Assembly (NCBI GenBank): GCA_029556915.1
Contig: JAKQIT010000131.1
Location: 1 to 64,000 of the forward strand
Origin: Pseudomonadota bacterium
GTDB taxonomy: Bacteria > Pseudomonadota > Gammaproteobacteria > Burkholderiales > Methylophilaceae
Direction: 5' to 3'
Length of the DNA stretch: 64,000 nt
Below the pieces are notes generated by a model, which did not search any database, was not told the origin of the DNA, and saw only the letters and a program-made list of their open reading frames with translations. Positions 48,193 to 64,000 of the stretch are shown here, piece after piece (positions within the stretch are counted from its first letter, which is position 1; each line of letters starts with the position of its first letter). The translations under genes and the position numbers were made by a program.

Positions 48193-49872
48193 TTAGTTAT
48201 TATGTATCTGATCCAATTGTCTTCTGTATTGTATCGCATCACTTGCGCTTACTCCGCAAGCAGGAAATCTTGGATCTGGAATACATTCTGGGGATGAATT
48301 TGTCCCTGAGCTTGGTGGTGGTGGGATGTAGTATGCAACTTCAATAGCTTTTTCTGCAATTAAACCTTCCATCGTCCAGTAGAACAAGCTGTTCCTTCTA
48401 ACTTGCTTCTCACTATTAACATCAACTGCGGCTCCAAAAACAAATGGGATTTCCTTGTATCTTTCATCATAAGAGCATCTTTGCTTGATACCCTCTTTAC
48501 GACAAGTTAAATTTTCAACAGCAATCCGCATTTCGGTAGATTTAAATTCGTAACCAAGAATATTGCTGATTTTGTCATAGGAGTAGCCACTCGTGATAAC
48601 CGTGTGAGATAGCTTAAGCTCACCGTTTGTTTTTTCAACACTTGCTTTCAGAATTGCTCTTTGGACATCATCAACACTTGGGCTACTATTGTTTTTAATT
48701 TTCAACTTTGCTTGCCGAGCAGACTCCTCTGCCAGCCTTCTTTGTTGCTCCTCATATTTTCTTTGTTCTTCAGCTTTAATTTGTGTGGATCGAGCTTTAA
48801 ATACGCTCGCAACGGCAGGAGTATTAAAGGCCACACGTTTTAAATCATCCGTGGGATATAAATAGCTAAATTCAGTTTCAATTCCAGCGCTTGTAGTTGA
48901 TGCTTTAAATTTTTTGATCGCATCATCAGCACCAGCTATAACCACACTTGTTGCATACTTTTCGTAAGGTGAGTTCGCGAATGATCTATCATTGACCAGT
49001 TCGCTTGGCCAAGAAACCTTGCTTGAAGTTCTGGCATATATGCACTCATAAATATTATCTGTGCGGAAACGACTGAATTGCTTGAGTGTTTCTGTTCCTA
49101 TGCTGCTTACTGGGATGCTAATCAAGTTGTTAAGGGCATTATTGTAAACACTCGATAATTTACTCACGTAGTTTTGTTCAATACTTGAAATTTGCTGATC
49201 TTGTGCAGCTAATACACTTCTGTTGTAATCCAAGTCGCGCTTAAATTCCTCATATGCATTTTCCTCAGCCTTTTGCCTTTCTACCACTGGATCTTTTTTC
49301 TCTAAACCCAAGCCACGCAGTATGTCCTTAGATAGCTTTCTACTATCTAAACGCCCAGTTCTTGTTACATATCCAGCATCCTGATCTCGTTGCTCTTTTT
49401 GAGCTCGCGCAGCTTTAGTTTGCTCGTAACGTTGCCTAGGGACCGCTTGGTCAGCTTTATTAGTTTCTTCAATATTAAACTTCCAGATTGCTCGCATTTG
49501 AATGGCTTCTTTGCCTAGCGCTACTGCTTGACTATAAGCTTGAGTATCTACAATTGACATTCCTTCGCTATTCGTAACTTTTACCAATCCACTACTGCTA
49601 CATAGATTCTGGATTTCAGAAGACTCCTGAACCTTTGGAGCTTGCGCGGAGTAATCTAAAATTACTTCTTTTGTTACTACACCTTTTAGATCACGCCCTA
49701 TAGAGTTCTTAGGTTTATATAATGTCCTAAGTGTTGCATTTGTTAATCCAGTGTTAGTTGCAACATTTGAGCTCGTATGCGTGGATTCTGCTGTTTTATT
49801 CTGAATTGTTCCAGAAGTTGCGCATCCCGTAAGAGCTGCTAAATAAATTAAACTTATAATCTTTTTATTCAT
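48193..49872 (-). CDS. Large lipoprotein, unknown function (559 aa)
   Basis: The signal with lipobox (IISLIYLAALTGC) marks a lipoprotein. The mature part is Ser/Thr/Asn-rich at first, with a long charged helical middle (QRYEQTKAARAQKEQRDQDA) and coiled-coil stretches (EEQRKYEEQQRRLAEESARQ). A beta-rich C-terminal part contains several cysteines (ENLTCRKEGIKQRCSY, ECIPDPRFPACG). No family recognised. It has its own copy of the CCTGAC-N16-CGTCAA promoter about 50 bp upstream, so it belongs to the sigma regulon. Confidence 0.78.
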   Translation of the reverse strand: MNKKIISLIYLAALTGCATSGTIQNKTAESTHTSSNVATNTGLTNATLRTLYKPKNSIGRDLKGVVTKEVILDYSAQAPKVQESSEIQNLCSSSGLVKVTNSEGMSIVDTQAYSQAVALGKEAIQMRAIWKFNIEETNKADQAVPRQRYEQTKAARAQKEQRDQDAGYVTRTGRLDSRKLSKDILRGLGLEKKDPVVERQKAEENAYEEFKRDLDYNRSVLAAQDQQISSIEQNYVSKLSSVYNNALNNLISIPVSSIGTETLKQFSRFRTDNIYECIYARTSSKVSWPSELVNDRSFANSPYEKYATSVVIAGADDAIKKFKASTTSAGIETEFSYLYPTDDLKRVAFNTPAVASVFKARSTQIKAEEQRKYEEQQRRLAEESARQAKLKIKNNSSPSVDDVQRAILKASVEKTNGELKLSHTVITSGYSYDKISNILGYEFKSTEMRIAVENLTCRKEGIKQRCSYDERYKEIPFVFGAAVDVNSEKQVRRNSLFYWTMEGLIAEKAIEVAYYIPPPPSSGTNSSPECIPDPRFPACGVSASDAIQYRRQLDQIHNN

Positions 49873-49920
49873 AATTCTCTCATTTCAAAATTTATCACCA
49901 TTAAGACCCCAAGTACTCAT

Positions 49921-49948
49921 TTGACGGGGTATGAACACAGTGGTCAGG
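49921..49948 (-). promoter_or_regulatory. ECF-type promoter (regulon site 1)
   Basis: On the minus strand CCTGAC (49943-49948), 16 bp, CGTCAA (49921-49926), 48 bp before the start of the large lipoprotein gene. Confidence 0.85.
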
Positions 49949-50008
49949 AAAGAAAAGGAAATAGTCACGTTCCCATATAGTCAGGCTCGTTGTAATATTG
50001 CTTAATTC

Positions 50009-51208
50009 CTAACTACCATATTCATATAACACTCTAGTCGCACCTTTGCCCTGAGAGTGTTTGATATTGGTGTTAAGCAACACCATCTTTTTTGCTTCAC
50101 CCTCAGTACCCATAATGGTGATTAAATCTCCCTCGGTTAATTTTCCATCTCTAAAACGTATCATGTGATAACCTTGAAGTAGTACTTTTAAACCTTTAGT
50201 TTGGTAATTTTTAATTGCTGAATCCAGGTCGCCGCAATACTCTTTTTTTCTTTCAAGTTGACATGCGAGTTCAACTTTTTCTAAATCAGGTTCAATATTC
50301 GCTTGCTTAATGCTGCTATGCTCAGGGGCAATGGAAATAATCTTAATTACATACTGTGGCGCACACATTTCACTAAACATTATCCAAGCATAGCTTTGCA
50401 ATTGATTATCTATTTTCTCTACACCCAACTCAATACCACTAACATTACTTAATATATCAAGATGATTTCCTGCAAGTTGTGAATACTTAGCATATGCTGA
50501 ACTATACGACTTTGGAATCACTGAGTAGTCTTTTGAACAGCCTTGGTAGTAAGGAAATAGCAGTGGCTTTTCTAACGCTTTTGGCTCTACAGGCTGGGGG
50601 TTCGCATATTCATAATAGCGACTCTCATAACTTTTCCATGTGGTTAAATCAGCAAACAAAACATCAACTAATTGCTGTCTATCTTTAAAATAACAATACC
50701 CGCCTTCACCCTTACCTTCTTTACCATAAATAACACCTGATTTAGCCAGACTTGTTACAAATGCATCTTTGATACCGCTACATTTTTTATCCTCTATAGA
50801 AAAGCTATCCTCATCTGTCTTATCAAGTAACGAATAAAGAAACATCCTATATCTAGGGTCATTCTTCTGGGCAATGTATGTATTTCTCTTATGCGTAGTA
50901 AAAAAATCAATATATGCTTCATCACTATCTGTTGGTGTTACCTGAGTGGCATCATCACCTCCATAAACTCTATACTGTCCTTTATTTGATGTGATTCTGC
51001 TAGTATCAATTTTATCCAAGTATTGCTCACCATTTTCGTCAACATTAAATTGTCGATAAATGTAATAACCACTTTTAATAGGCGTTGCTAATTGCCAATC
51101 ACCATATGGGAAAAGCTTTTTTTCAGAGGCTAGGCAGCCAGCTAATAGCAAAAAACTCGCTAATATAATTAGTAGTTTCTTATTTAAATACTGCATTTCA
51201 GATTTCAT
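50009..51208 (-). CDS. Lipoprotein, unknown function (399 aa)
   Basis: Lipobox LLAGC after KLLIILASFLLLAGCLASEK marks a lipoprotein; an alternative ATG four codons downstream would give the same mature protein. The mature part is beta-rich and Tyr/Lys-rich with a few cysteines (KKCSGIKDAF, QGCSKDYS). No family recognised. It starts 12 bp after the stop of the next lipoprotein gene (51221), so the two form one operon under the site-2 promoter. Confidence 0.75.
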   Translation of the reverse strand: MKSEMQYLNKKLLIILASFLLLAGCLASEKKLFPYGDWQLATPIKSGYYIYRQFNVDENGEQYLDKIDTSRITSNKGQYRVYGGDDATQVTPTDSDEAYIDFFTTHKRNTYIAQKNDPRYRMFLYSLLDKTDEDSFSIEDKKCSGIKDAFVTSLAKSGVIYGKEGKGEGGYCYFKDRQQLVDVLFADLTTWKSYESRYYEYANPQPVEPKALEKPLLFPYYQGCSKDYSVIPKSYSSAYAKYSQLAGNHLDILSNVSGIELGVEKIDNQLQSYAWIMFSEMCAPQYVIKIISIAPEHSSIKQANIEPDLEKVELACQLERKKEYCGDLDSAIKNYQTKGLKVLLQGYHMIRFRDGKLTEGDLITIMGTEGEAKKMVLLNTNIKHSQGKGATRVLYEYGS

Positions 51209-51220
51209 TTAGTCAATGCG

Positions 51221-51874
51221 CTATTTATTTTTTTGGCTTATTCTACCTACTACAGCAAAAGATATATTTTGATTGTTTGATAGTAATTTCATAATCCTGC
51301 TGAGATTTTCTATTGAGGGTTTCTTTATATTAAGGCTACCATCAACCCCAAACTTAAATTGGGTGACTTTACGCAGTTCTGTTTTTAAATTTTCATCAAA
51401 TGAACGACCATCTGGCAAAAAGTATTGCCATATATTTTCATCTTTATTATGGCGTACAAAACCATAGAAGATTTTTTTAGGTTGAGCTAGATTCGATTCT
51501 GAATCTTGCGCTGTAACACCAATTATATTCAAATCTTCAGAAAGTCCATTAATTACTTCTAATTGGAAAAGATAGAGGTTACCTTCAATGTTTTTGAGTG
51601 ATATTAAGTAATAGCCTTTATTATTATTTATAGCAACCAACTCGCCACTTTTTACACGAATTAACCGTAACGAATTGCAGTCGTTGGTTTTTGCTAAATT
51701 AGCATAATCTTTCTCCGCTAGGCAATTACTGTAGTCACCTAATTGCAAACCTAAATCTGTTGAATACTGCATCGGCAAAACGGCCTTTTCAGACTCAACT
51801 AAACAACCTGTGAGGGCAAGTGTCATTAATAATAAGCCAATGCCCACCGTAAAATTAATTAACATAGAACGCAT
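51221..51874 (-). CDS. Lipoprotein, unknown function (217 aa)
   Basis: Hydrophobic signal ending in LTLALTGC (lipobox) followed by a small beta-rich mature domain (GELVAINNNKGYYLISLKNI, GNLYLFQLEVING). First gene of the operon that includes 50009. Its start lies 43 bp after the ECF-type promoter site 2. No family recognised. It lies just downstream of the CHAT gene, which has a separate promoter. Confidence 0.78.
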   Translation of the reverse strand: MRSMLINFTVGIGLLLMTLALTGCLVESEKAVLPMQYSTDLGLQLGDYSNCLAEKDYANLAKTNDCNSLRLIRVKSGELVAINNNKGYYLISLKNIEGNLYLFQLEVINGLSEDLNIIGVTAQDSESNLAQPKKIFYGFVRHNKDENIWQYFLPDGRSFDENLKTELRKVTQFKFGVDGSLNIKKPSIENLSRIMKLLSNNQNISFAVVGRISQKNK

Positions 51875-51916
51875 TTAATAACTTCCTTTACTTTAAAAAA
51901 TTACGACAACTCATAT

Positions 51917-51944
51917 TCGACGATTCACTATTGCATCTGTCAGG
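51917..51944 (-). promoter_or_regulatory. ECF-type promoter (regulon site 2)
   Basis: On the minus strand CCTGAC (51939-51944), 16 bp, CGTCGA (51917-51922), 42 bp before the 217-residue lipoprotein gene. It sits in the 74-bp gap after the CHAT gene. Confidence 0.85.
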
Positions 51945-51948
51945 CAAT

Positions 51949-54768
51949 CTACCGCCAGTTTCCTGAAATCACAAAACCCGCCCAATGATGTGGTGACTTC
52001 CAGTCAGCATTTCCTGCTTTTCCTGATGCCATTTCCAGTTGCACCGCCCTTAAGGCTTCTGCCTTGTTTAAGCCTTGGTTACGTTTTGCATAGTAATCTT
52101 GCATGAGTTTTGCTGTGCTTTGGTCAGAAACTTTCCAAAGCGTTGCCATCACAGCTTGCGCACCTTGGCGCTGGGTTTGCGCACTCAGGCTTTCAATTTC
52201 TTTACCAGTGCCATCATTACTGCCAGTCACGGCGGTTTGGCATGCTGAATAAGTAACTAAATCAAAGTTTTTAAAGTTGAGCGGGATTGCACTCATTTCT
52301 CTCAGGCTAAACTTTGTGCCATCGCCCATATAAAGTGATGATTCACCTGGGTCACTAGGTTGCAATTCAAAATGGCTGGCGACATGCAGCACATTGTATA
52401 GTTTGTTATTAGTTGACTTGGTTACATCTATAAACTGTCCACGAGTAAATGTGGCATCTAAATATTCATCCCCTTCTAAACCACTTGTTTTTAAAATACC
52501 TGCCAATTCATTTGGCACTGCCGTAAGCGCTCTTAATCCATTGACCGATTTTGACAAACCCATGGCGGCAACACGCCATTTTGGATTACTTGGTTTTTCT
52601 AACGCTTGGTTGGCCGCTTCGTTGTAAATAGCAACGGTGTAATTTTCTAACAAATAATGATTATTAGAATCCATGAGGGCGGCAAATGGCAATAGCCTAA
52701 GTTGGCTATCTAGCGAGAGCATAAGCGTCTTGGCTTTAAACTTTTTTAGCTCTGGCAGAATGGGGGTTATTAGTAAAGTGTATAACTCTTTTAAAGCTGG
52801 AGAGTAATATTTAGCATCAGCTTTTGGATTTTGAATCTGCTTGGTGACTAACACTACATTTTGATAAAAGCTTGTGTAAGTTATTGGTACTTCCTTGAAA
52901 ACAGGCTGAGCATTTGGCACATTCATCACAATAATAAGCTTACCTTTAGTGACTAAATACTGAATACCAATCGCAGCAGCCTTGGGCTCTGAAATGGCTA
53001 GATTATTAATGGTTTTTTGCAGAGCCGTTGTTTCAGCCACCACACTATCATTATTTTGTGTGGCTTTAGAAGAGGTTATTTTGACTGCGGCATCAATCTC
53101 TGCCAGCCGGCCTTTGATTTCTTTAGAAAAATCTTCATAAGATTTCGGTATATTTTTAGTAGCGACTTGATTTTGTTTTAAATATTTATTGTAACTATCT
53201 AATGCAGCCTGCTCTGCTGAAGTATATTTCAATCGCATCTTGCGTGGATCATCTGCCGCGTCGCGCAAACTTTCGTACAGTTCCCTCTCTTTAAGCATTT
53301 GCAGCACTTGTTGCGCCTCAGCACTTCTGCCTTGATAAAACATCAATGCAGGAACAACTTCATAAGACAGGCGTGAAACAACATCAAACATACCATTAAA
53401 ATTAGAATTTAGATTATTTTCTGATTGTTTGATTGTTTGCAAAGTATTAATTGCTTGTTTACCCCAAAAAATCGAAAGATCTGGCTTTTCTTTTGCCGCG
53501 TAAAGCAGGCTTAGCAAAGTTTTCGACATGGCAGCAGTAATATTTTCAGGGCCATTAGGGCTGGAGTACTGAATTGATGAGTGCAAAATACTGGCAAGCT
53601 CATCCATATCACCAGTTTCATTCGCAATTTGAACAAACGCTAGCCAGAATAATGCAATGCTTAATTGAGGTTCTGCATTGGGGACCTTTTGTAACTCCAG
53701 AATACCTTTCTTAGCCTTTGAAATTGATAAATCTAACCACTTAGCCTGGTTAAGTATCTCTTTAACATTGGTGGGTTTTTGATTACTATTTTTTACCGTT
53801 TGATATTTTTGATTATAATCAATCGACAACTGAATATAGTTTTGAGCCAATGTAAACTGATTGTGTTGCGGGTCACTCTCTAATTTACTGATATGAGCTT
53901 CCAATATTTTTATAGCCCCGTCAATGTCTCCTTTTTTAATTTTTTCATCATGGCTAGGAGGCGTGAAGTTAAATGCAGATGGCAAATCATCACTAGAGGT
54001 CGAACTAAAGCTAACTTTATTCTTATTAGCATTTAAGCGATCATATTGCGCTTGAATAACTGCATATCGATAGCGGGGCAAAGAGGAGTCTTGTTCAAAA
54101 ATTGCTAAACTTTTTGCTTGATATTCCAAAGCTTTGTTAAGGTTGTTTTGTTGAACTTTAACTTCTGCCCAACTGTTGTAAACCTCTGCAATCAGAAAGT
54201 TATTTTTTTTAACGTTACCTGAGTCATCTCTAGTTTGAATATACTCAAAAAATTTTGTTATCGCTGTTTCAGCTTTATCAAGTTGCTTGGTGGTTAAATA
54301 TGCATTCGCTAAATTTAATACTACGATACTAAGCTTAGGTGAGTAGATAATTTTCTGTTTGTTATTCTTTTTAGCATCATGAATTGCGTACTCTTGATAG
54401 GCATTATTCATTTCTTCTAAATATGGAATTGCCTTTAAAGGTTCACCATCATCCAAATAAAATTCTGCTAAACCTAGTTTAACATCATCAACAATTTTTG
54501 TTTGCTTACCGTATTTAGCTTCTACTTGGTTAATCAGTTTAACAATAAGATTTTTATGTTTTTCTCTGTAAACCAAATCCGACATGTAAAATTTTTCTAA
54601 GTCATATGTAGCCTGATTGTGTTCATCAGACAACTCACCATATTTACTCTTGGCCAAATCAACTTGCTTAATAAGCATCGCTTCTTTATTGGCATCCTCA
54701 GCCCAAGCAGTAGAAAGTGAATTTAACGTAAAGCAGAAAACTAAAAAAAGGCTAATGAATTTTTTCAT
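51949..54768 (-). CDS. Exported TPR-CHAT protein (caspase-like protease fold)
   Basis: A 939-residue protein with signal peptide FISLFLVFCFTLNSLSTAWA, so the whole protein is exported. About 500 residues of TPR-like helical repeats follow (LNLANAYLTTKQLDKAETAI, AEVYNSWAEVKVQQNNLNKA). A coiled-coil stretch leads to the C-terminal CHAT domain. The catalytic dyad is visible: His799 in LHVASHFEL and Cys843 in LVTYSACQTAVTGS, with the family end ALRAVQLEMAS and HWAGFVISGNW. It is a putative cysteine protease in the periplasm. The gene is divergent from the sigma gene and has its own ECF-type promoter. Proteolysis of the nearby membrane protein (55662) is a testable idea. Confidence 0.9.
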   Translation of the reverse strand: MKKFISLFLVFCFTLNSLSTAWAEDANKEAMLIKQVDLAKSKYGELSDEHNQATYDLEKFYMSDLVYREKHKNLIVKLINQVEAKYGKQTKIVDDVKLGLAEFYLDDGEPLKAIPYLEEMNNAYQEYAIHDAKKNNKQKIIYSPKLSIVVLNLANAYLTTKQLDKAETAITKFFEYIQTRDDSGNVKKNNFLIAEVYNSWAEVKVQQNNLNKALEYQAKSLAIFEQDSSLPRYRYAVIQAQYDRLNANKNKVSFSSTSSDDLPSAFNFTPPSHDEKIKKGDIDGAIKILEAHISKLESDPQHNQFTLAQNYIQLSIDYNQKYQTVKNSNQKPTNVKEILNQAKWLDLSISKAKKGILELQKVPNAEPQLSIALFWLAFVQIANETGDMDELASILHSSIQYSSPNGPENITAAMSKTLLSLLYAAKEKPDLSIFWGKQAINTLQTIKQSENNLNSNFNGMFDVVSRLSYEVVPALMFYQGRSAEAQQVLQMLKERELYESLRDAADDPRKMRLKYTSAEQAALDSYNKYLKQNQVATKNIPKSYEDFSKEIKGRLAEIDAAVKITSSKATQNNDSVVAETTALQKTINNLAISEPKAAAIGIQYLVTKGKLIIVMNVPNAQPVFKEVPITYTSFYQNVVLVTKQIQNPKADAKYYSPALKELYTLLITPILPELKKFKAKTLMLSLDSQLRLLPFAALMDSNNHYLLENYTVAIYNEAANQALEKPSNPKWRVAAMGLSKSVNGLRALTAVPNELAGILKTSGLEGDEYLDATFTRGQFIDVTKSTNNKLYNVLHVASHFELQPSDPGESSLYMGDGTKFSLREMSAIPLNFKNFDLVTYSACQTAVTGSNDGTGKEIESLSAQTQRQGAQAVMATLWKVSDQSTAKLMQDYYAKRNQGLNKAEALRAVQLEMASGKAGNADWKSPHHWAGFVISGNWR

Positions 54769-54802: not shown

Positions 54803-54830
54803 AAGACGTATGAATTTACAAAACGTCAGG
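54803..54830 (-). promoter_or_regulatory. ECF-type promoter of the CHAT gene (regulon site 3)
   Basis: On the minus strand CCTGAC (54825-54830), 16 bp, CGTCTT (54803-54808), 34 bp before the CHAT start. Perfect match to the consensus. Confidence 0.88.
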
Positions 54831-54937
54831 TTAACAACTTTAATTTCTACAGCCAACCTGACCAATTTAATGCTTTTGCGTCATAGCAGAAATATCTCAG
54901 TGTATTCACATTATATTTGAGATATTTTTAAAGCTTT

Positions 54938-54965
54938 TCTGACTTAACAAAACTTTAAACGTCTA
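54938..54965 (+). promoter_or_regulatory. ECF-type promoter of the sigma gene (regulon site 4)
   Basis: TCTGAC (54938-54943), 16 bp, CGTCTA (54960-54965), 77 bp before the sigma gene. Two bases differ from the consensus, which could mean weaker autoregulation. Confidence 0.75.
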
Positions 54966-55042: not shown

Positions 55043-55660
55043 ATGCAGGGTGAGGAGTTTGTGCGTCGAATGCGTAAGGGGGATGCTGGCGTGTGGGATG
55101 ATCTAATGCCAGTATTGCGAAAGTTAGCACTTGGTGCGTGCCGTGACTTGCGCGTGTTTGACCAGTTAAAAGACGACATTGTGCAAGATGTTGCACTTAA
55201 GGTTTTCACAAACTGGGAAAGCTTTCAAGGACAAAGTAAGCTGAGTGTATGGATTTACTCTATCGCCCGTAACCGTTGCTTGGATGAAATGCGTAAGAAT
55301 AAAGTACGAGGTGATGACCAAGACCATACACCTTACCAGGATGATGATAGTGACATTTCTGCAACGGACTTGATTGTTGACCACAGCCATTCCAACATGG
55401 AGCAACGTTTGTGCGTACAACAAATGATTGCTGAGCTTGATGCGCAACCTATTGCCCGTAAAGGCAGTATGCGCATGATAGATGTCATCCGATGGTGTGT
55501 AGAAAACAGCCCAAGTTCTGATGAGCTATCACAATATTTGGGCACTAGCGTCAGTGCTGCTAAAGAGCGTAAAAGCTACATCATTAAACACCTGCGCGAA
55601 CTCTGCCAAAAATTTTGCGGGCATGACGAATGCGCCTTTAGCAAACACGAGGTGAACTAA
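55043..55660 (+). CDS. ECF-type sigma-70 family sigma factor
   Basis: A 205-residue RNA polymerase sigma factor. Region 2: DDIVQDVALKVFTNWESFQG and SKLSVWIYSIARNRCLDEMR, the core-binding and -10 recognition part. Region 4: SSDELSQYLGTSVSAAKERK and SYIIKHLRELCQKF with the HTH for the -35 box. A 60-residue linker (DQDHTPYQDDDSDISATDLI) separates them. Region 3 is absent, as in ECF factors. A matching promoter lies upstream of its own gene and of at least eleven other transcription units nearby, making it the obvious candidate to read them. It is directly followed by a probable anti-sigma gene. Confidence 0.9.
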   Translation: MQGEEFVRRMRKGDAGVWDDLMPVLRKLALGACRDLRVFDQLKDDIVQDVALKVFTNWESFQGQSKLSVWIYSIARNRCLDEMRKNKVRGDDQDHTPYQDDDSDISATDLIVDHSHSNMEQRLCVQQMIAELDAQPIARKGSMRMIDVIRWCVENSPSSDELSQYLGTSVSAAKERKSYIIKHLRELCQKFCGHDECAFSKHEVN

Positions 55661-55661
55661 C

Positions 55662-56288
55662 ATGGCAAACACTAAAGAAACCGATTTTTTTGAAACACTT
55701 GCTGGCCGTGAAAGCGGCCACCCAGTAGCTGACAACCTGCGTGAAGCGCTACAAGCTGAAGCGGAAACCATTAAAAACGCAGAAAATGCCAAATCAGAAA
55801 AACTCCCTGATTATGAACAAGCAAGGATGGATGCTGTAAAAAAGCAACTGCTTGAAGCTGGTGTATTGAAGCAACCAAGTAATACCGAACCCTCTTGGTT
55901 AAGCAGATTTTTTAATCAATTCAAATCTAACTTTGTAGCGCATAACTGGGGGGCTGGTTTAGCCATCACGGCAAGTGTGCTAATTGTAAGTACCATACTT
56001 TTACAGCAGCCCAACCCAATTGTGGATACTGGCGACCTTGATACAGTAAGGGGTGGCAACACGCAAACCATTCTCACAGACAACCCAGCGTTAACAGTGC
56101 AAACACTTAAAGAAACACTCACAAAAGCAGGCGCGGAAGTGATTGATGCACAAATCAACGACACAGAATGGACATTAGAAATTTCAGTACCTGATAAAAG
56201 CAAAATTGAAACGGTAATGGGCTTGCTAGCCAAGGCTGGAGTAAAGGTAAGCGATGAGCCTCCTTATCAAGTGAGTGTTAAAAAATAG
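55662..56288 (+). CDS. Probable membrane anti-sigma factor
   Basis: A 208-residue protein starting 1 bp after the sigma stop. Residues 1-95 are cytoplasmic and helical (ADNLREALQAEAETIKNAEN and YEQARMDAVKKQLLEAGVLK). One membrane helix spans about 97-115 (GLAITASVLIVSTILL). About 90 periplasmic residues form a ferredoxin-like or BON-like beta-alpha domain (VQTLKETLTKAGAEVIDAQI). It lacks the HxxxCxxC zinc motif of ZAS anti-sigmas, so it is not a known anti-sigma class by motif. Gene order and topology are those of an anti-sigma factor (inference). The periplasmic part would be accessible to the CHAT protein. Confidence 0.78.
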   Translation: MANTKETDFFETLAGRESGHPVADNLREALQAEAETIKNAENAKSEKLPDYEQARMDAVKKQLLEAGVLKQPSNTEPSWLSRFFNQFKSNFVAHNWGAGLAITASVLIVSTILLQQPNPIVDTGDLDTVRGGNTQTILTDNPALTVQTLKETLTKAGAEVIDAQINDTEWTLEISVPDKSKIETVMGLLAKAGVKVSDEPPYQVSVKK

Positions 56289-56296: not shown

Positions 56297-56325
56297 CCTG
56301 ACAAGTGATACACCTATAACGTCTG
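56297..56325 (+). promoter_or_regulatory. ECF-type promoter (regulon site 5)
   Basis: CCTGAC (56297-56302), 17 bp, CGTCTG (56320-56325), 41 bp before the small membrane protein gene. The one site with a 17-bp spacer. Confidence 0.7.
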
Positions 56326-56721: not shown

Positions 56722-56749
56722 CCTGACAAACGTTTTGCTTTGTCGTCTT
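56722..56749 (+). promoter_or_regulatory. ECF-type promoter (regulon site 6)
   Basis: CCTGAC (56722-56727), 16 bp, CGTCTT (56744-56749), 34 bp before the lipoprotein gene at 56784. Perfect match. Confidence 0.88.
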
Positions 56750-57401: not shown

Positions 57402-57427
57402 ATCACTTTAGAGTTTGAGCCACTAGT

Positions 57428-57553: not shown

Positions 57554-57581
57554 CCTGACCAATCAACACTCCAAACGTCTT
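57554..57581 (+). promoter_or_regulatory. ECF-type promoter (regulon site 7)
   Basis: CCTGAC (57554-57559), 16 bp, CGTCTT (57576-57581), 53 bp before the zinc-finger gene at 57635. Perfect match. Confidence 0.88.
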
Positions 57582-57634
57582 ACCTTTACAGCGATATTTT
57601 TATAAACCTAAATATTCACCTAAAGGAAAAAATC

Positions 57635-57850: not shown

Positions 57851-57903
57851 GTAGCAAGTTGCCACATTATTTGGGCTTAATAATCTCAGCAATTTGCGCC
57901 GAT

Positions 57904-57949
57904 AAAAATTTACGCCTCTGCAAGCCGCATCCAGACTGGCTTGCAGAGG
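57904..57949 (+). repeat. REP-like repeat, copy 3 (perfect hairpin)
   Basis: Same unit as 44743 and 46696. CCTCTGCAAGCC (57915-57926) and GGCTTGCAGAGG (57938-57949) form a perfect 12-bp stem with an 11-nt loop. It may end the zinc-finger transcript. Confidence 0.85.
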
Positions 57950-58012
57950 TGCCAGTTGAATAAGTGAATTTATTTAGCGTATTTTTAAACTATTTTTAAG
58001 AAAGAAAAAAAC

Positions 58013-58549
58013 ATGAAACACAGTCAATTACTATTTGCCGTTTTACTCACTGCATTCGTTGGTTCTGCACAGGCGGCTACTAAAACGTTTGCCGATTGGG
58101 AGGCCTGTAGAGATGCTGCTGAAGAATCTGTTGATTTTAACGAAGTAGGCAATGCTGGTGTTGAAGCTGCAATTAAAGAACAATGCGGTATGCCGCCAGC
58201 AAAAGAACCATCTAAAGCAACAGGTATTGTAGGCATGGCACCTTACGACATTGTGAGATCAAAAGCATTTAAGGCAAAGTTTAAACAAATTACCAAAGGT
58301 AAATACACGCAACTTGTAGAACGTCTTGTAGTGGCGAGTGAAACAGAGTTACAGGGAGATTGGGTAGTTGGAGAAGGCATGATGCCCCATGCGGGTGGTA
58401 GTGATGAAGCGGCAATTGCAATTAACATTAAAACTGGTAAAGTTTATGCTGCCATGCTTGAAAACGCGAAGCAAATATCTGCTTTTGGTTTTACTGACCC
58501 TAAAAACCCACCACCGTTTTTAAAAAAATGGATTGGTGAAAGGTACTAA
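58013..58549 (+). CDS. Secreted protein, unknown function (178 aa)
   Basis: Signal peptide LLFAVLLTAFVGSAQA, then a small mature protein with two cysteines near the start (WEACRDAAEE, KEQCGMPP) and a compact alpha/beta part (KYTQLVERLVVASETELQGD, AAIAINIKTGKVYAAMLEN). No family recognised. No ECF-type promoter was found directly upstream; it may be read through from site 7 or use another promoter. Confidence 0.75.
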   Translation: MKHSQLLFAVLLTAFVGSAQAATKTFADWEACRDAAEESVDFNEVGNAGVEAAIKEQCGMPPAKEPSKATGIVGMAPYDIVRSKAFKAKFKQITKGKYTQLVERLVVASETELQGDWVVGEGMMPHAGGSDEAAIAINIKTGKVYAAMLENAKQISAFGFTDPKNPPPFLKKWIGERY

Positions 58550-58583
58550 GGTAGAAATTACAAAGTAGATAGTCATCTTACAG

Positions 58584-58611
58584 CCTGACGCTCTAGGGGT
58601 TTAAGCGTCAA
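58584..58611 (+). promoter_or_regulatory. ECF-type promoter (regulon site 8)
   Basis: CCTGAC (58584-58589), 16 bp, CGTCAA (58606-58611), 53 bp before the membrane protein gene at 58665. The sequence also forms a TGACGC/GCGTCA hairpin, so it may double as a terminator for the gene before it. Confidence 0.75.
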
Positions 58612-58664
58612 ATAACAAAATGACGTGCAAGCATTGAAGAGAAATTCTAAAAGATAAAGGAAAG

Positions 58665-59051
58665 ATGATGAGTTCAGACAAACCATGGAAATTTCACCCA
58701 GCGATGATTGGTTATAGTATTGCAGGATTGGGGGCAATAATTCTAGTTATTGTAGGTATACAAAGTTTTCTTGAAATGACTGGAATTGCGAATGGTGCTA
58801 TCAGTATTCTTATAATTTTCGGTGGGTTAAGTGTTTTATTCCATTGTTGGCAGGCACTTTTGAGAAAAAATATTAATACATACACACATCTAATTTCGCC
58901 CGCAAGTGTTCTTGTACTTTTAATTTTTTTCACTTCAGCAATTACTCCACACGAGAGTAAAGTAATTGCGGCACGCGCTATATTACTCGCGGCATTGATT
59001 GGCTTAATATTTCTTTTAGTTTTTTGGAAAAGCTATAAAGCCGGTGAGTAA
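58665..59051 (+). CDS. Four-helix membrane protein (128 aa)
   Basis: Four hydrophobic segments: IGYSIAGLGAIILVIVGIQS, AISILIIFGGLSVLFHCWQA, ISPASVLVLLIFFTSAI and AILLAALIGLIFLLVFW. No motif or family recognised. The start could be either of two adjacent ATG codons. AAAGGAAAG precedes it. Regulon member through site 8. Confidence 0.75.
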   Translation: MMSSDKPWKFHPAMIGYSIAGLGAIILVIVGIQSFLEMTGIANGAISILIIFGGLSVLFHCWQALLRKNINTYTHLISPASVLVLLIFFTSAITPHESKVIAARAILLAALIGLIFLLVFWKSYKAGE

Positions 59052-59148
59052 GCTTTAATGTAAATTAAACTAGTCAAGCACAACACCATTAAATATAGGT
59101 ACTAAATAATTGACGAATTTTACTTAATTATTACTTCAAACCCCTTTC

Positions 59149-59176
59149 CCTGACCATTACAACTCTCACACGTCTT
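59149..59176 (+). promoter_or_regulatory. ECF-type promoter (regulon site 9)
   Basis: CCTGAC (59149-59154), 16 bp, CGTCTT (59171-59176), 55 bp before the lipoprotein operon at 59232. Perfect match. Confidence 0.88.
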
Positions 59177-59231
59177 AACCCTAAGTTCACAAATTTTCCA
59201 GCCAATGCTGGGCTGAATTAAGGGTTAAGAT

Positions 59232-59486
59232 ATGCTAATCAAATTTCTTCTCAAGCTTTTATTGTTGGCAGTCACTGCCACAGCTCTTTCATCTTGTAAT
59301 TCCATCCCCGCACGCCGAGCGGATGAAGTTGTTGTGAAAGCGGTTACGCGTGGCACGCTACCTGTGCGACGTGAGCTGGCGCGGACTTTTTCTCATGCGG
59401 TGCAATGCGCAATAGGCACACGTTATAATTGTGATGAGTTTAATACTAACCCAAATGAAAGTGTAGGTAACCAAAATGAAAACTAA
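59232..59486 (+). CDS. Small lipoprotein (84 aa)
   Basis: Lipobox TALSSC after LLKLLLLAVTATALSSC marks a lipoprotein. The mature part is Arg-rich (SIPARRADEVVVKAVTRGTL) with two further cysteines (AIGTRYNCDEF). No family recognised. The stop overlaps the next start by 11 bp, so it heads a four-gene operon driven by site 9. Confidence 0.72.
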   Translation: MLIKFLLKLLLLAVTATALSSCNSIPARRADEVVVKAVTRGTLPVRRELARTFSHAVQCAIGTRYNCDEFNTNPNESVGNQNEN

Positions 59487-60081
59487 AAAACGCAACGCAG
59501 AGCAATCGAATAGCATTGTTGGGCTTTTGTTATTGGCTACACTTTTATTTTTTAGTGGCTGTGCGCAAGTTGCTAACCAAAAGTCGAATGGCTCAAAATA
59601 TGGGCAACCAAACGCTGCTCGATGGAAGGCGTTAGAGACTTTACCAGTAGTCACCCCAAGTGAAGCCCCTAAAAAAATAAGTATTACCGTCATGGGGCAA
59701 TCTTTCCGCTATTTAGACGATTATCTCAGCTTTCCCTCACAAAAGCCCAATTCGGAACAATTAAATCGTAACTTAAAGGCCTTGGGGCATAATCAAAGCG
59801 CAAGTACGCAGTTTTCAAACACAGCGCTTGATAAAGTATTTAAATTTACACAGCAACGTGAAGGTATGCTCGTTTTTCATTGCGTTGGTGATTGTGCAAA
59901 TGTGGAGATTAACGTCTCAGGTGATTTTTACGCTTCACTAGGTATGAAGTCGCAGTTTCCAGCAGTTTGGTTTAAGTCCCCAACGCTGTATAGGCATACA
60001 ATTTCTGTAAGAATCTCTAACCCAGATGTAGTTGCTAAGCAACAATTTAATTTGCAAGTGTCACTATGGGATAGCGTTTAA
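59476..60081 (+). CDS. Lipoprotein, unknown function (201 aa)
   Basis: Lipobox LLFFSGC after SIVGLLLLATLLFFSGC. The mature part is beta-rich and ends in a domain with two cysteines (LVFHCVGDCANVEINVSGDF). It overlaps the preceding small lipoprotein gene by 11 bp, so the two are translationally coupled. No family recognised. Confidence 0.76.
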   Translation: MKTKKRNAEQSNSIVGLLLLATLLFFSGCAQVANQKSNGSKYGQPNAARWKALETLPVVTPSEAPKKISITVMGQSFRYLDDYLSFPSQKPNSEQLNRNLKALGHNQSASTQFSNTALDKVFKFTQQREGMLVFHCVGDCANVEINVSGDFYASLGMKSQFPAVWFKSPTLYRHTISVRISNPDVVAKQQFNLQVSLWDSV

Positions 60082-60112
60082 CCAATTGCCCAGTGTGTTA
60101 AAAAACTTAGAT

Positions 60113-60454
60113 ATGATTAAACATCAATCAACCCTATGCAAATGCAACATCCCACCATTTCACTATGCTGATTATGACTCTGTGGATTTTGATACTGGCA
60201 ATTCAATTGCAGAAATCTCGTTACAAAACTGCAAACATTGCGGCAATATCTGGCTGAAATATTTAATTGAAGACCCTTCACGCAGTGGCTCTGGGCGTTG
60301 GTGGCGCGTGCTTGTGCCAGCAAGCCAAGTGGCAAGCATCACAGCAGATAACGCCAAAGCGTTTATAGAGAACCAAACCGAAGGCATTGTGGGTGGCAGT
60401 TATTTTGGCTCTACAGGCATGAAAATTAGTGGGAGAAAAATAGAAATTAGGTAA
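60113..60454 (+). CDS. Hypothetical protein with cysteine pairs (113 aa)
   Basis: The ATG at 60113 was chosen; the frame is open further upstream into the previous gene. Two cysteine pairs (STLCKCN and QNCKHCG) suggest a zinc ribbon, then an acidic/aromatic part (SRSGSGRWWRVLVPASQVAS) and NAKAFIENQTEGIVGGSYFG. No signal peptide. Third gene of the site-9 operon. The pattern is found in small uncharacterised proteins, sometimes acting as immunity proteins; that link was not tested. Confidence 0.68.
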   Translation: MIKHQSTLCKCNIPPFHYADYDSVDFDTGNSIAEISLQNCKHCGNIWLKYLIEDPSRSGSGRWWRVLVPASQVASITADNAKAFIENQTEGIVGGSYFGSTGMKISGRKIEIR

Positions 60455-60464
60455 AACAATCATC

Positions 60465-61190
60465 ATGAACCAAGCTTATTTTGAAGCATTTATTACCAAC
60501 AAAATGCACTACGCAAGTGATGAGCAAGCCATTGCCGCGCTATTTTTCTGCAACATCAAAAACAGCACTTGGCAACAAGCATGCCTTGATAGCAAGCGGA
60601 TTAAAAATGATTGGGTAGATGGGTATTTTGAATATACTAACTATGGTCAAACCAGAACGTGGATCCACCAACCTTTCTCCAGCGAAGTCTATTACCGAAA
60701 AACATTCACCGTTCAAGAATGGTATTTACGCGACTTTTTTAAAGCCATTAAAACAGTGGAGTTAGAAGCCTATATTCTATTTGTAACCTTTGATTGCGAT
60801 AGCGCCAGCAACAAAACCGTTTACATTTACGACTTATATATCAAGCCAACAGACTTTGAAAAACTGATCCGCCCAAATCTAATTGAATTACCCACGGTAG
60901 ATTTGCATGACATTAATCAGCGAAATGACCCAGACCGCATGATATTGCTTGGGGATACGCCTATAAAAGCCATTGATTTAATCAAATATTGGAAGATTGT
61001 AGGCGCAGATACCGATGAAAAACGCGCCTGGAACACCCCGACACCTGATAAATTGGTTAAAATATTGGCGGAATTTGAGGCAAACCCAGAGGCTAAATTT
61101 GATGAATTTTCTGAGTTTGATGGGACGAATTCTCACAAACAAGATTGGTTTGATAAAGTGAAAAAGTTATTTGGGAAATTTGTTCCCTGA
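60465..61190 (+). CDS. Hypothetical protein (241 aa)
   Basis: No family recognised and no signal peptide. The N-terminal part is aromatic and mixed alpha/beta (IAALFFCNIKNSTWQQACLD, WVDGYFEYTNYGQTRTWIHQ). A central strand-rich segment (AYILFVTFDCDSASNKTVYI) and a C-terminal helical tail (WFDKVKKLFGKFVP) follow. Last gene of the site-9 operon, 10 bp after the zinc-ribbon-like gene. Confidence 0.72.
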   Translation: MNQAYFEAFITNKMHYASDEQAIAALFFCNIKNSTWQQACLDSKRIKNDWVDGYFEYTNYGQTRTWIHQPFSSEVYYRKTFTVQEWYLRDFFKAIKTVELEAYILFVTFDCDSASNKTVYIYDLYIKPTDFEKLIRPNLIELPTVDLHDINQRNDPDRMILLGDTPIKAIDLIKYWKIVGADTDEKRAWNTPTPDKLVKILAEFEANPEAKFDEFSEFDGTNSHKQDWFDKVKKLFGKFVP

Positions 61191-61213
61191 CGGTTTATTC
61201 ACAAACGCGTCAT
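61186..61213 (+). promoter_or_regulatory. ECF-type promoter (regulon site 10)
   Basis: CCTGAC (61186-61191), 16 bp, CGTCAT (61208-61213), 29 bp before the secreted protein gene at 61243. It overlaps the stop codon of the preceding gene. Confidence 0.8.
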
Positions 61214-61242
61214 ATCAATACTTAAATTATTAAGGAAATATT

Positions 61243-61761
61243 ATGATTTTCAGAAATGCTTTTAAACAGTTTGTGACGTTAGTTGTAGTTATGTTTTCTT
61301 CGATAGGGTATGCCGCACCAACGATCAAAGATGCTGAAAACTTCATATTATATAAATTTTCTAGCATTGTAGAAATGGATTCAGATGAATTTTCAACTTG
61401 GAGCATCCATGACCCCAAGATAGGCAAATCAACTGAATGGACATGGAGAGAAAATTCTGTGGTCGGAAAAGGCCATTTAGCAATTTCTAAGTTTGAAACA
61501 TATTTACTTGACCCAAGGGAGTTAGCGTACCCAGTTACTTATAAAGGAAATAAAATTTTCTTTGAATGTGCAAAAGTACGGTGTATGAGTGTAAAAATTC
61601 GTACCATGGACTCCGTCAATAATCGCTTTTTGGACACAGATGAAACAAGAACTTCAAACTGGTGGTATTTTAAAACGGAAGAAGATGCACAACGTGTTGC
61701 AAAGGCTATGAATTTTTTGCTAAAGACATATGGCGCAAAAGTAAAACAAGATCAATTTTAA
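61243..61761 (+). CDS. Secreted protein, unknown function (172 aa)
   Basis: Signal peptide FVTLVVVMFSSIGYAAP, then a mature protein with a Trp-rich middle (STWSIHDPKIGKSTEWTWRE), a Cys pair (FECAKVRCMSV) and a C-terminal WYFKTEEDAQRVAKAMNFLL. No family recognised. AAGGAAA precedes the ATG. Regulon member through site 10. Confidence 0.75.
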   Translation: MIFRNAFKQFVTLVVVMFSSIGYAAPTIKDAENFILYKFSSIVEMDSDEFSTWSIHDPKIGKSTEWTWRENSVVGKGHLAISKFETYLLDPRELAYPVTYKGNKIFFECAKVRCMSVKIRTMDSVNNRFLDTDETRTSNWWYFKTEEDAQRVAKAMNFLLKTYGAKVKQDQF

Positions 61762-62149
61762 CTAACGAATGAATATGCAAGCCTAGGCTGGCTTGAGCAA
61801 ACGCGATACCCAGCACAAAACAAAAAACTTTCTAATTAGTTATTTCAGTTAATTTGTAGACTTGCTTTATGGGTATTGGCTTTGCTACCACCCGTACTGC
61901 TGCAAACTAAACGCAATCACCAACAGATAGCTAGTGCTACAACCGTCACCTTCGTTTTAAACAAAAAATCACAGGCTTTAAGTTCTTAAATATCACGCGC
62001 AATGCGGTATTTTTTTGTTGCAAATATATAGCGCATTTTATGCGGTGATTAATGCGGCTATTCACCGCAACGCTTTCCTGACAATTTTCGTTTCTGCGCG
62101 TCTTATCATCAACAGCTTGAAAAATAACTGACAATCTAGGAGACTTATT
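61762..62149. other. Gene-free spacer with hairpins
   Basis: About 390 bp. Near 61770-61795 AAGCC...GGCTT is a decayed relative of the REP-like unit. A GCGGTGA/TCACCGC hairpin lies at 62042-62068. Site 11 of the promoter series starts at 62077. No reading frame with coding character was seen. Confidence 0.5.
62077..62104 (+). promoter_or_regulatory. ECF-type promoter (regulon site 11)
   Basis: CCTGAC (62077-62082), 16 bp, CGTCTT (62099-62104), 45 bp before the gene at 62150. Perfect match. Confidence 0.88.
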
Positions 62150-62725
62150 TTGAGCACATTGATAACAGATGGTGAAGTGTATGTTAACGGCAAATTATAT
62201 TACCGTGGAATCTACCCTGATATTTCTAGCCGTGGCTTGAGTATTTGGCGTAGAGAAAAGGATAATACTTCGCAAATCAGCCCAGATGGCCCGCATTTTG
62301 ATCTTTTATTACCAACACTCAATTTTGTACGAAGTATCAGAGATGATCTTATTAAAAAGCCTGTTGATTACACCTTTCAAGGCTCTAACTTGGGGGGTGT
62401 TAACGATAACTGGGGTGCCGCAGCCAGAAGCTTGGGGCTTGTATCTAGAACGGTCAATTTGATTGAGCTTCACATGCACTTTGAAAACAAAATTCTTTTT
62501 TTAAATATATCTGGCACTGCAATAGATGATTCACGATGGGCAAACGAGAAAACCCGATTAGAACCTAAAAACTTTGAAATTAAATGCCCCATACCAGTGG
62601 CGTTGATTAGTAGCGTCTTTGATGGCACAGAGTCGGAGATTTGGTACTTGCAAAAGCGATTTGAGTATGAGTATGATGAAGAATATTATGAAGCGACAAA
62701 AAATGGCCCACCTAAGAAAAATTAG
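62150..62725 (+). CDS. Hypothetical protein (191 aa)
   Basis: TTG start with AGGAG eight bases upstream. A soluble alpha/beta protein with no signal peptide and no recognised family (GEVYVNGKLYYRGIYPDISS at the start, NLIELHMHFENKILFLNISG in the middle). Its end overlaps the next gene by 23 bp. First gene of the site-11 operon, with a helical protein and a receiver-like protein downstream. Confidence 0.72.
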   Translation: MSTLITDGEVYVNGKLYYRGIYPDISSRGLSIWRREKDNTSQISPDGPHFDLLLPTLNFVRSIRDDLIKKPVDYTFQGSNLGGVNDNWGAAARSLGLVSRTVNLIELHMHFENKILFLNISGTAIDDSRWANEKTRLEPKNFEIKCPIPVALISSVFDGTESEIWYLQKRFEYEYDEEYYEATKNGPPKKN

Positions 62726-63068
62726 ATTTATTGAGCCTTTGCTTTTATACGGCGATGAAAATGAAGATGTTATTTTTCAGGCTTGGTACCTGATAGAGCA
62801 CGGGAAGCAATGCATCAACAAGAAGTCAGAATTAAGGCGCGGGTTAAAAAATCAGTACCCAAGTGCGAATATTTTTAAAATTGAGGCTGCTATTCAATCG
62901 GCCTTCAAGTTAAATAATGCAGTCAACTGGACATTTAATGCGCTTTATTCTGTTAGGGATTCTCAGTACGAAAAAGCCGCTCTCAGCCTAAAAGCCCAAG
63001 CCCCATGTTTAACTGAAAAGGCTTACAGCAGCGCGTTATCAAGAACAATTTATTTTCTTGTAAAGTAA
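62703..63068 (+). CDS. Hypothetical helical protein (121 aa)
   Basis: The ATG at 62703 lies inside the end of the preceding gene, a normal coupling overlap; earlier in-frame ATGs would deepen it. The protein looks all-helical (QAWYLIEHGKQCINKKSELR, IEAAIQSAFKLNNAVNWTFN). No signal peptide and no family recognised. Middle gene of the site-11 operon. Confidence 0.68.
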   Translation: MAHLRKIRFIEPLLLYGDENEDVIFQAWYLIEHGKQCINKKSELRRGLKNQYPSANIFKIEAAIQSAFKLNNAVNWTFNALYSVRDSQYEKAALSLKAQAPCLTEKAYSSALSRTIYFLVK

Positions 63069-63079
63069 GGATAAATTCC

Positions 63080-63373
63080 ATGAAAGTATATTTAGATGAT
63101 GAAAGAACGACGCCGCAAGGCTGGGTAAGAACTTACTGGCCTGACGAGGTGATTGCGTTATTAGAAACTGGTGAAGTGCAAGAGCTTAGCCTAGACCATG
63201 ACCTTGGTGATGATGAGCGCGGCACGGGGTACGATGTGGTGTTATGGATTGAAGAAGCCGTGATGACACGTGGCTTTAAACCACCCAAAATCATGGTGCA
63301 TTCAGCCAACTCCTCTGCTCGCATAAAAATGCAAGCAGGCATTGACGCAATTGAGCGATTTGCTAATAATTGA
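63080..63373 (+). CDS. Receiver-like protein of the cyclic-phosphate-processing (cREC) type
   Basis: A 97-residue protein with a short receiver-like fold: MKVYLDDERTTPQGWVRTYW, EVIALLETGEVQELSLDHDL, GTGYDVVLWIEEAVMTRGFK and KIMVHSANSSARIKMQAGID. The DDE and DHDLG motifs match the compact receiver domain described near predicted RNA-repair and cyclic-phosphate enzymes. A phosphoryl-transfer role is not shown. Last gene of the site-11 operon, 11 bp after the helical protein gene. Confidence 0.8.
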   Translation: MKVYLDDERTTPQGWVRTYWPDEVIALLETGEVQELSLDHDLGDDERGTGYDVVLWIEEAVMTRGFKPPKIMVHSANSSARIKMQAGIDAIERFANN

Positions 63374-63414
63374 TTTGGCAGGATTTAATTTTTTTTAAAA
63401 TGTCAGAATCACTT

Positions 63415-63442
63415 CCTGACCGATTGTTTATTGATTCGTCTT
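63415..63442 (+). promoter_or_regulatory. ECF-type promoter (regulon site 12)
   Basis: CCTGAC (63415-63420), 16 bp, CGTCTT (63437-63442), 60 bp before the Sel1-repeat gene at 63503. Perfect match. Confidence 0.88.
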
Positions 63443-63502
63443 ATTGTCGTTGATTGGTATCAAAAAAGTTGACCTATCCTAAATTTACTAAGGAAAATAT
63501 TA

Positions 63503-64000
63503 ATGAATACAAAATTTATAACTAAGTCTTTATTATTAACAACTGCATTAGCAATTATGCTGCTACTCTCGATGCCAAGCAGAGCTGGCTTAGAAGAGGC
63601 TAATAGCGCTTATAACAACAAAGATTATAAAACAGCATTGAGAGAATATTTACCGCTAGCTAAGAAAGGCAATGATTATGCTCAGTTTAAGGTTGGGGAG
63701 CTATATTTTGAGGGTAAAGGAGTATTACAAGATTACGAAGAGGGTTACAAATGGTTAACAAAGTCGGCCGAGCAAGAAAACCCACTGGCTCTTGCTATGC
63801 TGGCAGTGAAATTTGCTGATGGAAAAGGGGTAAAAAGAATTCTTGTTTTTGCACATGCATATATTAATCTTGCTGAGGCAAATAGATTTAAATATCCAGA
63901 ATTAAATGAAAAAATAGATGTGTTTACTAAGCTACGTGATAGCTTAGAGCAAGAAATGACTCCATCTGAAGTTGAGGCTGCTCAAGTATTTGCTAAGGCT
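63503..64000 (+). CDS. Exported Sel1-repeat protein (5' part)
   Basis: Open to the window edge; at least 166 residues. Signal peptide LLLTTALAIMLLLSMPSRAG, then Sel1-like repeats (REYLPLAKKGNDYAQFKVGE, GVLQDYEEGYKWLTKSAEQE, GVKRILVFAHAYINLAEANR). Such solenoids bind partner proteins in the periplasm. AAGGAAA lies upstream of the ATG. Regulon member through site 12. The C-terminus is outside the window. Confidence 0.85.
   Translation, partial: MNTKFITKSLLLTTALAIMLLLSMPSRAGLEEANSAYNNKDYKTALREYLPLAKKGNDYAQFKVGELYFEGKGVLQDYEEGYKWLTKSAEQENPLALAMLAVKFADGKGVKRILVFAHAYINLAEANRFKYPELNEKIDVFTKLRDSLEQEMTPSEVEAAQVFAKA

What the first reader, a model, noticed from the sequence alone, without database searches (positions are those of the whole stretch)
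48193..64000. Compact ECF-sigma regulon: twelve copies of CCTGAC-N16-CGTCTT
Directly seen: twelve sites with the same two boxes and spacing (one with 17 bp) lie 29-77 bp upstream of start codons on both strands. Sites are at 49921, 51917 and 54803 (minus) and 54938, 56297, 56722, 57554, 58584, 59149, 61186, 62077 and 63415 (plus). Seven or so match perfectly, including both boxes at the CHAT gene. Known: ECF sigma factors use short -35/-10 boxes with 16-17 bp spacing and usually activate their own gene. Inferred: the sigma factor at 55043 reads them all, giving a local regulon of lipoproteins, secreted and membrane proteins and a CHAT protein. Such a dense cluster of one ECF promoter beside its own sigma gene is unusual.
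Basis: partly seen in the sequence, partly recalled or inferred. Interest (0 to 1): 0.92.

Follow-up and report, generated by a model that had tools for sequence, protein, structure and literature searches.

The report
Island-borne sigma factor regulon with protease
A probably mobile stretch of bacterial DNA carries its own transcription switch (an ECF sigma factor) together with about thirteen nearby gene groups that bear what looks like that switch's docking sequence, including a caspase-like protease gene that may help to turn the switch on.

Summary
All twelve listed sites exist; two were missed: 54857(+), and C76:64160(+), just past the window. All 14 end 31-160 nt before a same-strand start codon. 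In the 3.28-Mb genome CCTGAC-N16/17-CGTC occurs 13 times, all in this 14.3-kb stretch; 29 other spacings give 26 together. The cluster sits in an inferred ~67.5-kb island with an integrase and a tRNA-Lys repeat at its ends.

The link to the 55043 sigma has outside support. Seven relatives of this sigma were found; in all 7 a gene for a one-TM candidate anti-sigma factor adjoins it. The 4 loci over 5 kb also carry caspase-fold proteins (CHAT or C14). The exact motif is in 4 of 7 loci (7 sites, 0.6 expected). Of the last three found, none has an exact site and one a variant.

Best reading: a self-contained, autoregulated ECF regulon of mostly lipoproteins, exported and membrane proteins, controlled through the membrane anti-sigma factor, which the exported TPR-CHAT protein possibly cuts (dyad H799/C843 conserved). 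Transcription, inhibition and cleavage are inferred, not shown. It is a new variant of a known kind; nearest are ECF54-type CHAT neighbourhoods and Craspase.

The parts
55043..55660 (+). ECF sigma factor, 205 aa
   Evidence: Sigma70_r2 E=1.1e-11; TIGR02937 sigma70-ECF 50.6 bits over cut-off 42.9; profile with relatives matches solved ECF sigmas
55662..56288 (+). Candidate anti-sigma factor, 208 aa, one TM (about 96-114), C-terminal domain predicted outside
   Evidence: One base after the sigma gene; a one-TM protein adjoins sigma in 7 of 7 relative loci (TM computed); AF2 C-terminal beta-alpha-beta-beta-alpha-beta, pLDDT blocks 58-78, most of the rest under 50; only sub-threshold Pfam matches, none to an anti-sigma family, no NCBIfam match
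51949..54768 (-). TPR-CHAT protease-like protein, 939 aa, dyad H799/C843, apparently exported
   Evidence: CHAT E=1.4e-49; H799 and C843 invariant in the 7 CHAT domains aligned; signal peptide by eye
54805..54830 (-). Promoter-like site, CHAT gene, 36 nt to start
54857..54882 (+).
54938..54963 (+). Promoter-like site TCTGAC-N16-CGTC, sigma gene, 79 nt to start
49923..49948 (-). Promoter-like site, 559-aa lipoprotein gene, 50 nt
51919..51944 (-). Promoter-like site, lipoprotein genes 51221-51874 and 50009-51208, 44 nt
56297..56323 (+). Promoter-like site with 17-bp spacer, 56-aa membrane protein gene 56367, 43 nt
56722..56747 (+). Promoter-like site, lipoprotein gene 56784, 36 nt
57554..57579 (+). 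Promoter-like site, 71-aa CxxCxGxG protein gene 57635, 55 nt
58584..58609 (+). Promoter-like site, 128-aa membrane protein gene 58665, 55 nt
59149..59174 (+). Promoter-like site, lipoprotein genes 59232 and 59476, 57 nt
61186..61211 (+). Promoter-like site, exported 172-aa protein gene 61243, 31 nt (overlaps the end of the gene before)
62077..62102 (+). Promoter-like site, gene 62150 and following, 47 nt
63415..63440 (+). Promoter-like site, exported Sel1-repeat protein gene 63503, 62 nt
2240..2299 (.). Left end repeat: 3' part of tRNA-Lys(ttt), 57 of 60 bases as in the intact copy at C76:69764-69839, outside the window
2477..3928 (+). Tyrosine integrase at the left end of the island
   Evidence: Phage_integrase E=2.2e-23; PHROG integrase

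Best explanation
A self-contained, autoregulated ECF sigma regulon on a tRNA-Lys genomic island. The sigma factor at 55043 directs RNA polymerase to CCTGAC (-35) and CGTC (-10) boxes 16-17 bp apart. These drive its own operon (with the anti-sigma gene), the divergent TPR-CHAT gene, and eleven neighbouring units, mostly lipoproteins, exported and membrane proteins. At rest the one-TM protein at 55662 holds the sigma factor at the membrane. An envelope signal inactivates it, and the sigma factor switches on the whole cluster in one positive-feedback step. Shown by sequence: sites, confinement to the cluster, placement before starts, conserved neighbours. Inferred: that this sigma reads them, that 55662 is the anti-sigma factor, and the nature of the signal.
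For: 13 of 13 genome matches at spacing 16/17 lie in one 14.3-kb stretch around the sigma gene. 14 of 14 sites end 31-160 nt before same-strand starts; a random site would lie 15-165 nt before one in 10% of cases. In seven loci of related sigmas: 7 exact sites at 16/17 versus 4 at 21 other spacings; in 79 other ECF loci 10 versus 70, a rate that predicts 0.6 in the family loci. In L091 (another class of the phylum) five sites, two exact and three with one changed base, end 32-65 nt before starts: three genes of small apparently exported proteins, a caspase gene and a Band-7 gene. A one-TM protein gene adjoins sigma in 7 of 7 relative loci.
Against: No transcription data. Of four relatives fetched after the motif had been seen in others, L094 has an exact site, L184 only a CATC variant, L185 and L186 none; L185 is 19.9 kb with the same module. 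The exact sites in L058, L059 and L094 end 15-137 nt before the nearest ORF start kept, less regular than in the window; relaxed patterns also hit inside genes (two in L059, one in L185). The model of the window's sites transfers weakly: of four relative genomes, G950 had no match at E<=10, the G664 match is away from the sigma, and only G818's touched the sigma locus, at E=0.5. The own-genome model search scored 150 of 1193 candidates. In G664 and G818 the 10-base motif also occurs elsewhere, and in all three relative genomes searched with the pattern it is no commoner than the reversed control (G950's places were not listed). 55662 matches no known anti-sigma family.
Confidence: 0.87

Rival explanations
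1. The exported TPR-CHAT protein is the activating protease: on an envelope signal it cuts the outer domain of the membrane anti-sigma factor and starts its release, an extracytoplasmic counterpart of Csx29 cutting Csx30. A refinement of the best explanation.
For: CHAT, peptidase C14 or trypsin-like genes sit in the window locus and in 4 of 4 relative loci with over 5 kb of sequence; His/Cys conserved in 7 of 7 CHAT domains aligned; the CHAT gene is divergent from sigma and carries an exact site; Csx29 precedent (PMC10028731, passages); proteolysis proposed for ECF54, which has CHAT neighbours (PMC8999054, passages).
Against: No cleavage site known; the CHAT gene may be only an effector; export rests on a signal peptide seen by eye; CHAT homologues on three plasmids have no sigma gene among their listed neighbours, though that gene table is incomplete.
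Confidence: 0.3
2. Another regulator reads the boxes: a different host sigma factor or a DNA-binding activator.
For: The genome has further ECF-like sigmas (C55, C14); two-box sites with fixed spacing could be activator half-sites; 3 of 7 relatives lack the exact motif.
Against: No further exact site at 16/17 anywhere in the genome; sites recur beside relatives of this sigma in other genomes; the layout fits -35/-10.
Confidence: 0.07
3. The sites are copies of a dispersed repeat, or chance.
For: Many copies in a short stretch of an island; spacers slightly more alike than shuffled ones.
Against: Spacers 33% and flanks 32% alike; 0 of 100 shuffles; all before starts.
Confidence: 0.01

Closest known systems
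ECF54-type ECF sigma factors with CHAT, subtilase and carboxypeptidase neighbours (PMC8999054, passages read)
   Same: ECF sigma gene beside a CHAT-domain gene; proteolytic control proposed
   Different: [quoted passage not shown] here a one-TM candidate adjoins sigma in the window and in 7 of 7 relative loci. Group membership could not be tested.
Craspase: Csx29 (TPR-CHAT), Csx30 (sigma inhibitor), CASP-sigma (PMC10028731, passages read)
   Same: TPR-CHAT protein and ECF sigma in one locus; sigma motifs within the locus (three reported for D. ishimotonii)
   Different: Here CHAT appears exported and the inhibitor candidate spans the membrane; a Cas7-11 partner was not looked for; 14 sites instead of 3
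HrpL/hrp-box regulon and the hrp pathogenicity island (recalled; listing and abstract starts)
   Same: ECF sigma with promoters concentrated on an island
   Different: HrpL is controlled by transcription and its regulon also lies elsewhere (recalled); no CHAT or caspase (recalled)
RpoE-RseA / SigW-RsiW membrane anti-sigma systems (recalled; mentioned in PMC10028731 passages)
   Same: Membrane anti-sigma gene next to sigma, envelope-type targets, autoregulation
   Different: 55662 has no match to those families (Pfam, NCBIfam); targets found here are local

Membership tests
ECF sigma factor (group IV) | Sigma region 2, ECF profile | tested here: met
   PF04542 E=1.1e-11 over cut-off; TIGR02937 50.6 vs 42.9
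ECF sigma factor (group IV) | Recognisable region 4, no region 3 | tested here: inconclusive
   No Pfam region-4 hit for the window protein; TIGR02937 aligns to residue 186; relative L091 scores 24.7 for Sigma70_r4_2, cut-off 25.7
Autoregulated ECF regulon | Shared two-box promoter before its own gene and its targets | tested here: met
   As sequence only; activity not tested
ECF sigma with membrane anti-sigma factor | Adjacent gene, one TM, cytoplasmic N-terminus | tested here: met
   Adjacent in the window and 7 of 7 relatives; one TM in all 8; more positive before than after the TM in 7 of 8, L091 neutral
ECF sigma with membrane anti-sigma factor | Known anti-sigma domain fold | tested here: inconclusive
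   No Pfam anti-sigma match; AF2 N-terminus under pLDDT 50 with two sequences
ECF54 | ECF54 profile match | not testable with these tools
   Classification paper not held
ECF54 | No anti-sigma factor | tested here: not met
   Candidate anti-sigma gene adjacent in the window and 7 of 7 relatives; its function is inferred
Craspase (type III-E CASP) | Cas7-11, Csx30, CRISPR array | not tested
   No search for Cas7-11 or arrays was run
CHAT protease | CHAT domain with His-Cys dyad | tested here: met
   that these two residues are the dyad is recalled

The most novel reading that the evidence does not exclude
A mobile, self-contained envelope alarm: an island-borne ECF sigma held by a membrane anti-sigma factor and released by an exported caspase-fold (CHAT) protease that the sigma itself induces, so the island runs a protease-driven positive-feedback switch over its own surface proteins. 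It would be an extracytoplasmic counterpart of Craspase and the expanded member of a sporadically spread sigma / anti-sigma / caspase family with a shared promoter code.
Probability: 0.28. Interest if true: 0.82.

Novelty: new variant of a known kind. Interest (0 to 1): 0.6.

Why it matters
It gives a ready-made test bed: one sigma, one candidate inhibitor, one protease-like protein and fourteen natural promoter candidates with a strict code, all inside one island. If the caspase-fold protein releases the sigma, it would suggest a role for bacterial TPR-CHAT and C14 proteins found next to ECF sigma genes. The clean motif could serve as an orthogonal promoter set, and the sporadic spread suggests how a mobile element can bring its own closed regulon.

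Tried and rejected
Rejected: chance and dispersed-repeat origin. The two genome matches with 15-bp spacing (C38:22143, C128:28321) were taken as chance: the reversed-pattern control also gives 2. Sigma hits in 29 other genomes of the host's genus (best E 6e-7) were taken as ordinary ECFs. A first genome-contig scan and a viral scan with the sigma found no relative; plasmid hits were distant ECFs of under 60% identity. CHAT was found in 1 of 187 family genomes, the own one; three of the 66 plasmid records with CHAT homologues were looked at and list no sigma neighbour.

Dropped before counting: L060 (G610), L092 (G1033), L093 (own genome, C55) and G922, weaker sigma hits that I judged generic ECFs. 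Neighbours of L060 and G922 were not examined; L092 and L093 show no caspase-like ORF that I recognised; L060, L092 and L093 have no exact motif at 16/17. So 'seven relatives' means L058, L059, L091, L094, L184, L185, L186. Of the 80 loci kept (264 matched), L094 stood apart (E 5e-43, the next 8e-14); the other 79 served as controls. Two N16 sites in L177 (genome of L094) were not counted in the statistics. L174's model match lies inside a coding ORF.

Structure of 55662: mean pLDDT 51; no fold search was made on it. The ECF classification paper is not held. PDB sequence search with the CHAT protein: no match; with the anti-sigma profile: nothing significant.

Full report
OBSERVATION. The pattern CCTGAC-N16/17-CGTCTT has 6 exact matches in the window (0 in 100 shuffles); with up to two mismatches at N16 there are 15 (expected 2.2), of which 12 belong to the set. 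All twelve reported sites are present. Two more belong to it: 54857(+) and C76:64160(+), just past the window's end. Each of the 14 sites ends 31-160 nt before a start codon on its own strand; a random site in this stretch would lie 15-165 nt before one in 10% of cases. Thirteen transcription units are marked; the genes at 58013, 60113 and 60465 have no site of their own.

CONFINEMENT. In the host genome (3,275,171 bases, 165 contigs) CCTGAC-N16/17-CGTC occurs 13 times, all in contig C76 between 49.9 and 64.2 kb. The 29 other spacings between 3 and 33 give 26 matches in all. A sequence model of 13 sites, run over the genome, returned only those 13 at E<=10, but scored 150 of 1193 first candidates.

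ISLAND. The contig holds an intact tRNA-Lys(ttt) at 69764-69839, a copy of its 3' part (57 of 60 bases) at 2240-2299 beside tRNA-Lys(ctt), and a tyrosine integrase at 2477-3928. The first 2 kb, with dsbD, have 57.6% G+C; the 2-kb bins inside have 31.5-46.2%. The inferred island is about 67.5 kb. The sigma had no match at E<=1e-12 in 368 other genomes of the class sample, and the CHAT protein none at E<=1e-10 in 186 other genomes of the family. This fits acquisition by transfer.

PROTEINS. 55043 is an ECF sigma factor. 55662 begins one base after it, has one TM at about 96-114 with positive charge before and negative after it, and a C-terminal beta-alpha-beta-beta-alpha-beta domain of moderate confidence. 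51949-54768 is a TPR-CHAT protein with an apparent signal peptide; H799 and C843 are invariant in the 7 CHAT domains aligned. Other targets are lipoproteins (48193, 50009, 51221, 56784, 59232, 59476), exported proteins (61243, 63503), membrane proteins (56367, 58665, 64259/64788) and some apparently cytoplasmic ones (57635, 62150, 63080); lipobox, export and TM calls are by eye.

RELATIVES. Searches of 399 order genomes, 398 phylum genomes, 78 genomes of G950's order, 369 class genomes and genome contigs gave seven relatives of this sigma: L058, L059, L091, L094 (record titled uncultured Methylobacillus), L184, L185 and L186. In all seven a gene for a one-TM protein follows or overlaps the sigma gene (overlaps of about 8-137 nt, using the longest ORFs, or gaps of 6-31 nt). 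These proteins are only about 20-25% identical to 55662 where measured. The four loci with more than 5 kb of sequence carry caspase-fold proteins, one also a trypsin-like one: two CHAT (L059, by BLAST and alignment), C14 and CHAT (L091), C14 (L184), two C14 (L185). L058, L094 and L186 are contigs of 3.2-4.3 kb and cannot be judged. CHASE2 genes are near L091 and L185.

PROMOTER CODE IN RELATIVES. In these seven loci (74 kb) the exact motif occurs 7 times at 16/17 and 4 times at 21 other spacings; in 79 other ECF loci (1.2 Mb) 10 and 70 times. At the control rate 0.6 would be expected. Six of 7 against 1 of 10 are intergenic by the script's rule. By locus it is 4 of 7 against 10 of 79 (Fisher p = 0.012). 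In L091 five sites (two exact, two with CATC, one with CCTGAT) end 32-65 nt before starts; in L058, L059 and L094 the exact sites end 15-137 nt before the nearest ORF start kept. L094, L184, L185 and L186 were fetched after the motif had been seen in the first three: L094 has an exact site, L184 a CATC variant 51 nt before a likely start, L185 and L186 nothing convincing. Relaxed patterns also hit inside genes in L059 and L185. The shared code is therefore well supported for part of the family, not for all of it. The window model alone gave only weak matches in four relative genomes (best E 0.34), and whole-genome counts in three of them do not exceed the reversed control.

MECHANISM. Most likely the sigma factor is held by 55662 at the membrane and, once freed, reads all 14 sites, including its own and that of the CHAT gene. 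Positive feedback follows from the layout. That the CHAT protein helps to destroy 55662 is a guess with a precedent (Csx29 cuts Csx30, which relieves inhibition of CASP-sigma; PMC10028731, passages read) and a recurrent neighbourhood; I put it at 0.3. It may equally be an effector.

KNOWN. [quoted passage not shown] Neighbourhoods with caspase and ECF sigma genes have been noted (PMC8195603, passages). Around 55% of ECFs are given as autoregulated in another review (PMC8103513, passages). In my searches (top listings only where many papers matched) I found no paper on a sigma / anti-sigma / caspase module with this promoter; the motif itself was not searched for, and the library lacks most subscription journals and the main ECF classification paper, so this is weak evidence of novelty. 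Verdict: a real and well-defined new variant of a known kind.

Noticed in passing
window 4238-8884 (+): CBASS-like defence operon: SAVED-HNH effector, oligonucleotide cyclase, E1-E2 and JAB proteins, so the island also seems to carry anti-phage functions.
   Followed up: partly
window 44110-44367 and 43640-44101 (+): An 85-aa relative of the sigma factor with region 2 only (E 5.5e-11 to the sigma; sub-threshold Pfam region 2) directly after a MraZ-like ORF; a remnant or a truncated regulator.
   Followed up: partly
window 42839-43519, 44880-45635, 46827-47540: Three paralogues of 61-69% identity (one member tested, no Pfam family) and a 558-bp repeat of 81% identity; no motif site in front of them.
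   Followed up: no
L016:7789-8793 (C76:67789-68793): A second, weak integrase-like protein near the right end of the island (PHROG E=4.6e-6; no Pfam match).
   Followed up: no
window 63080-63373 (+): cREC_REC cyclic-phosphate processing receiver domain protein inside the presumed regulon.
   Followed up: no
L177 422-447 and 1504-1529 (-): Two N16 sites 69 and 23 nt before small ORFs (exported or membrane by eye) in the genome of L094, on a stretch where no sigma gene was seen: possible distant regulon members.
   Followed up: partly
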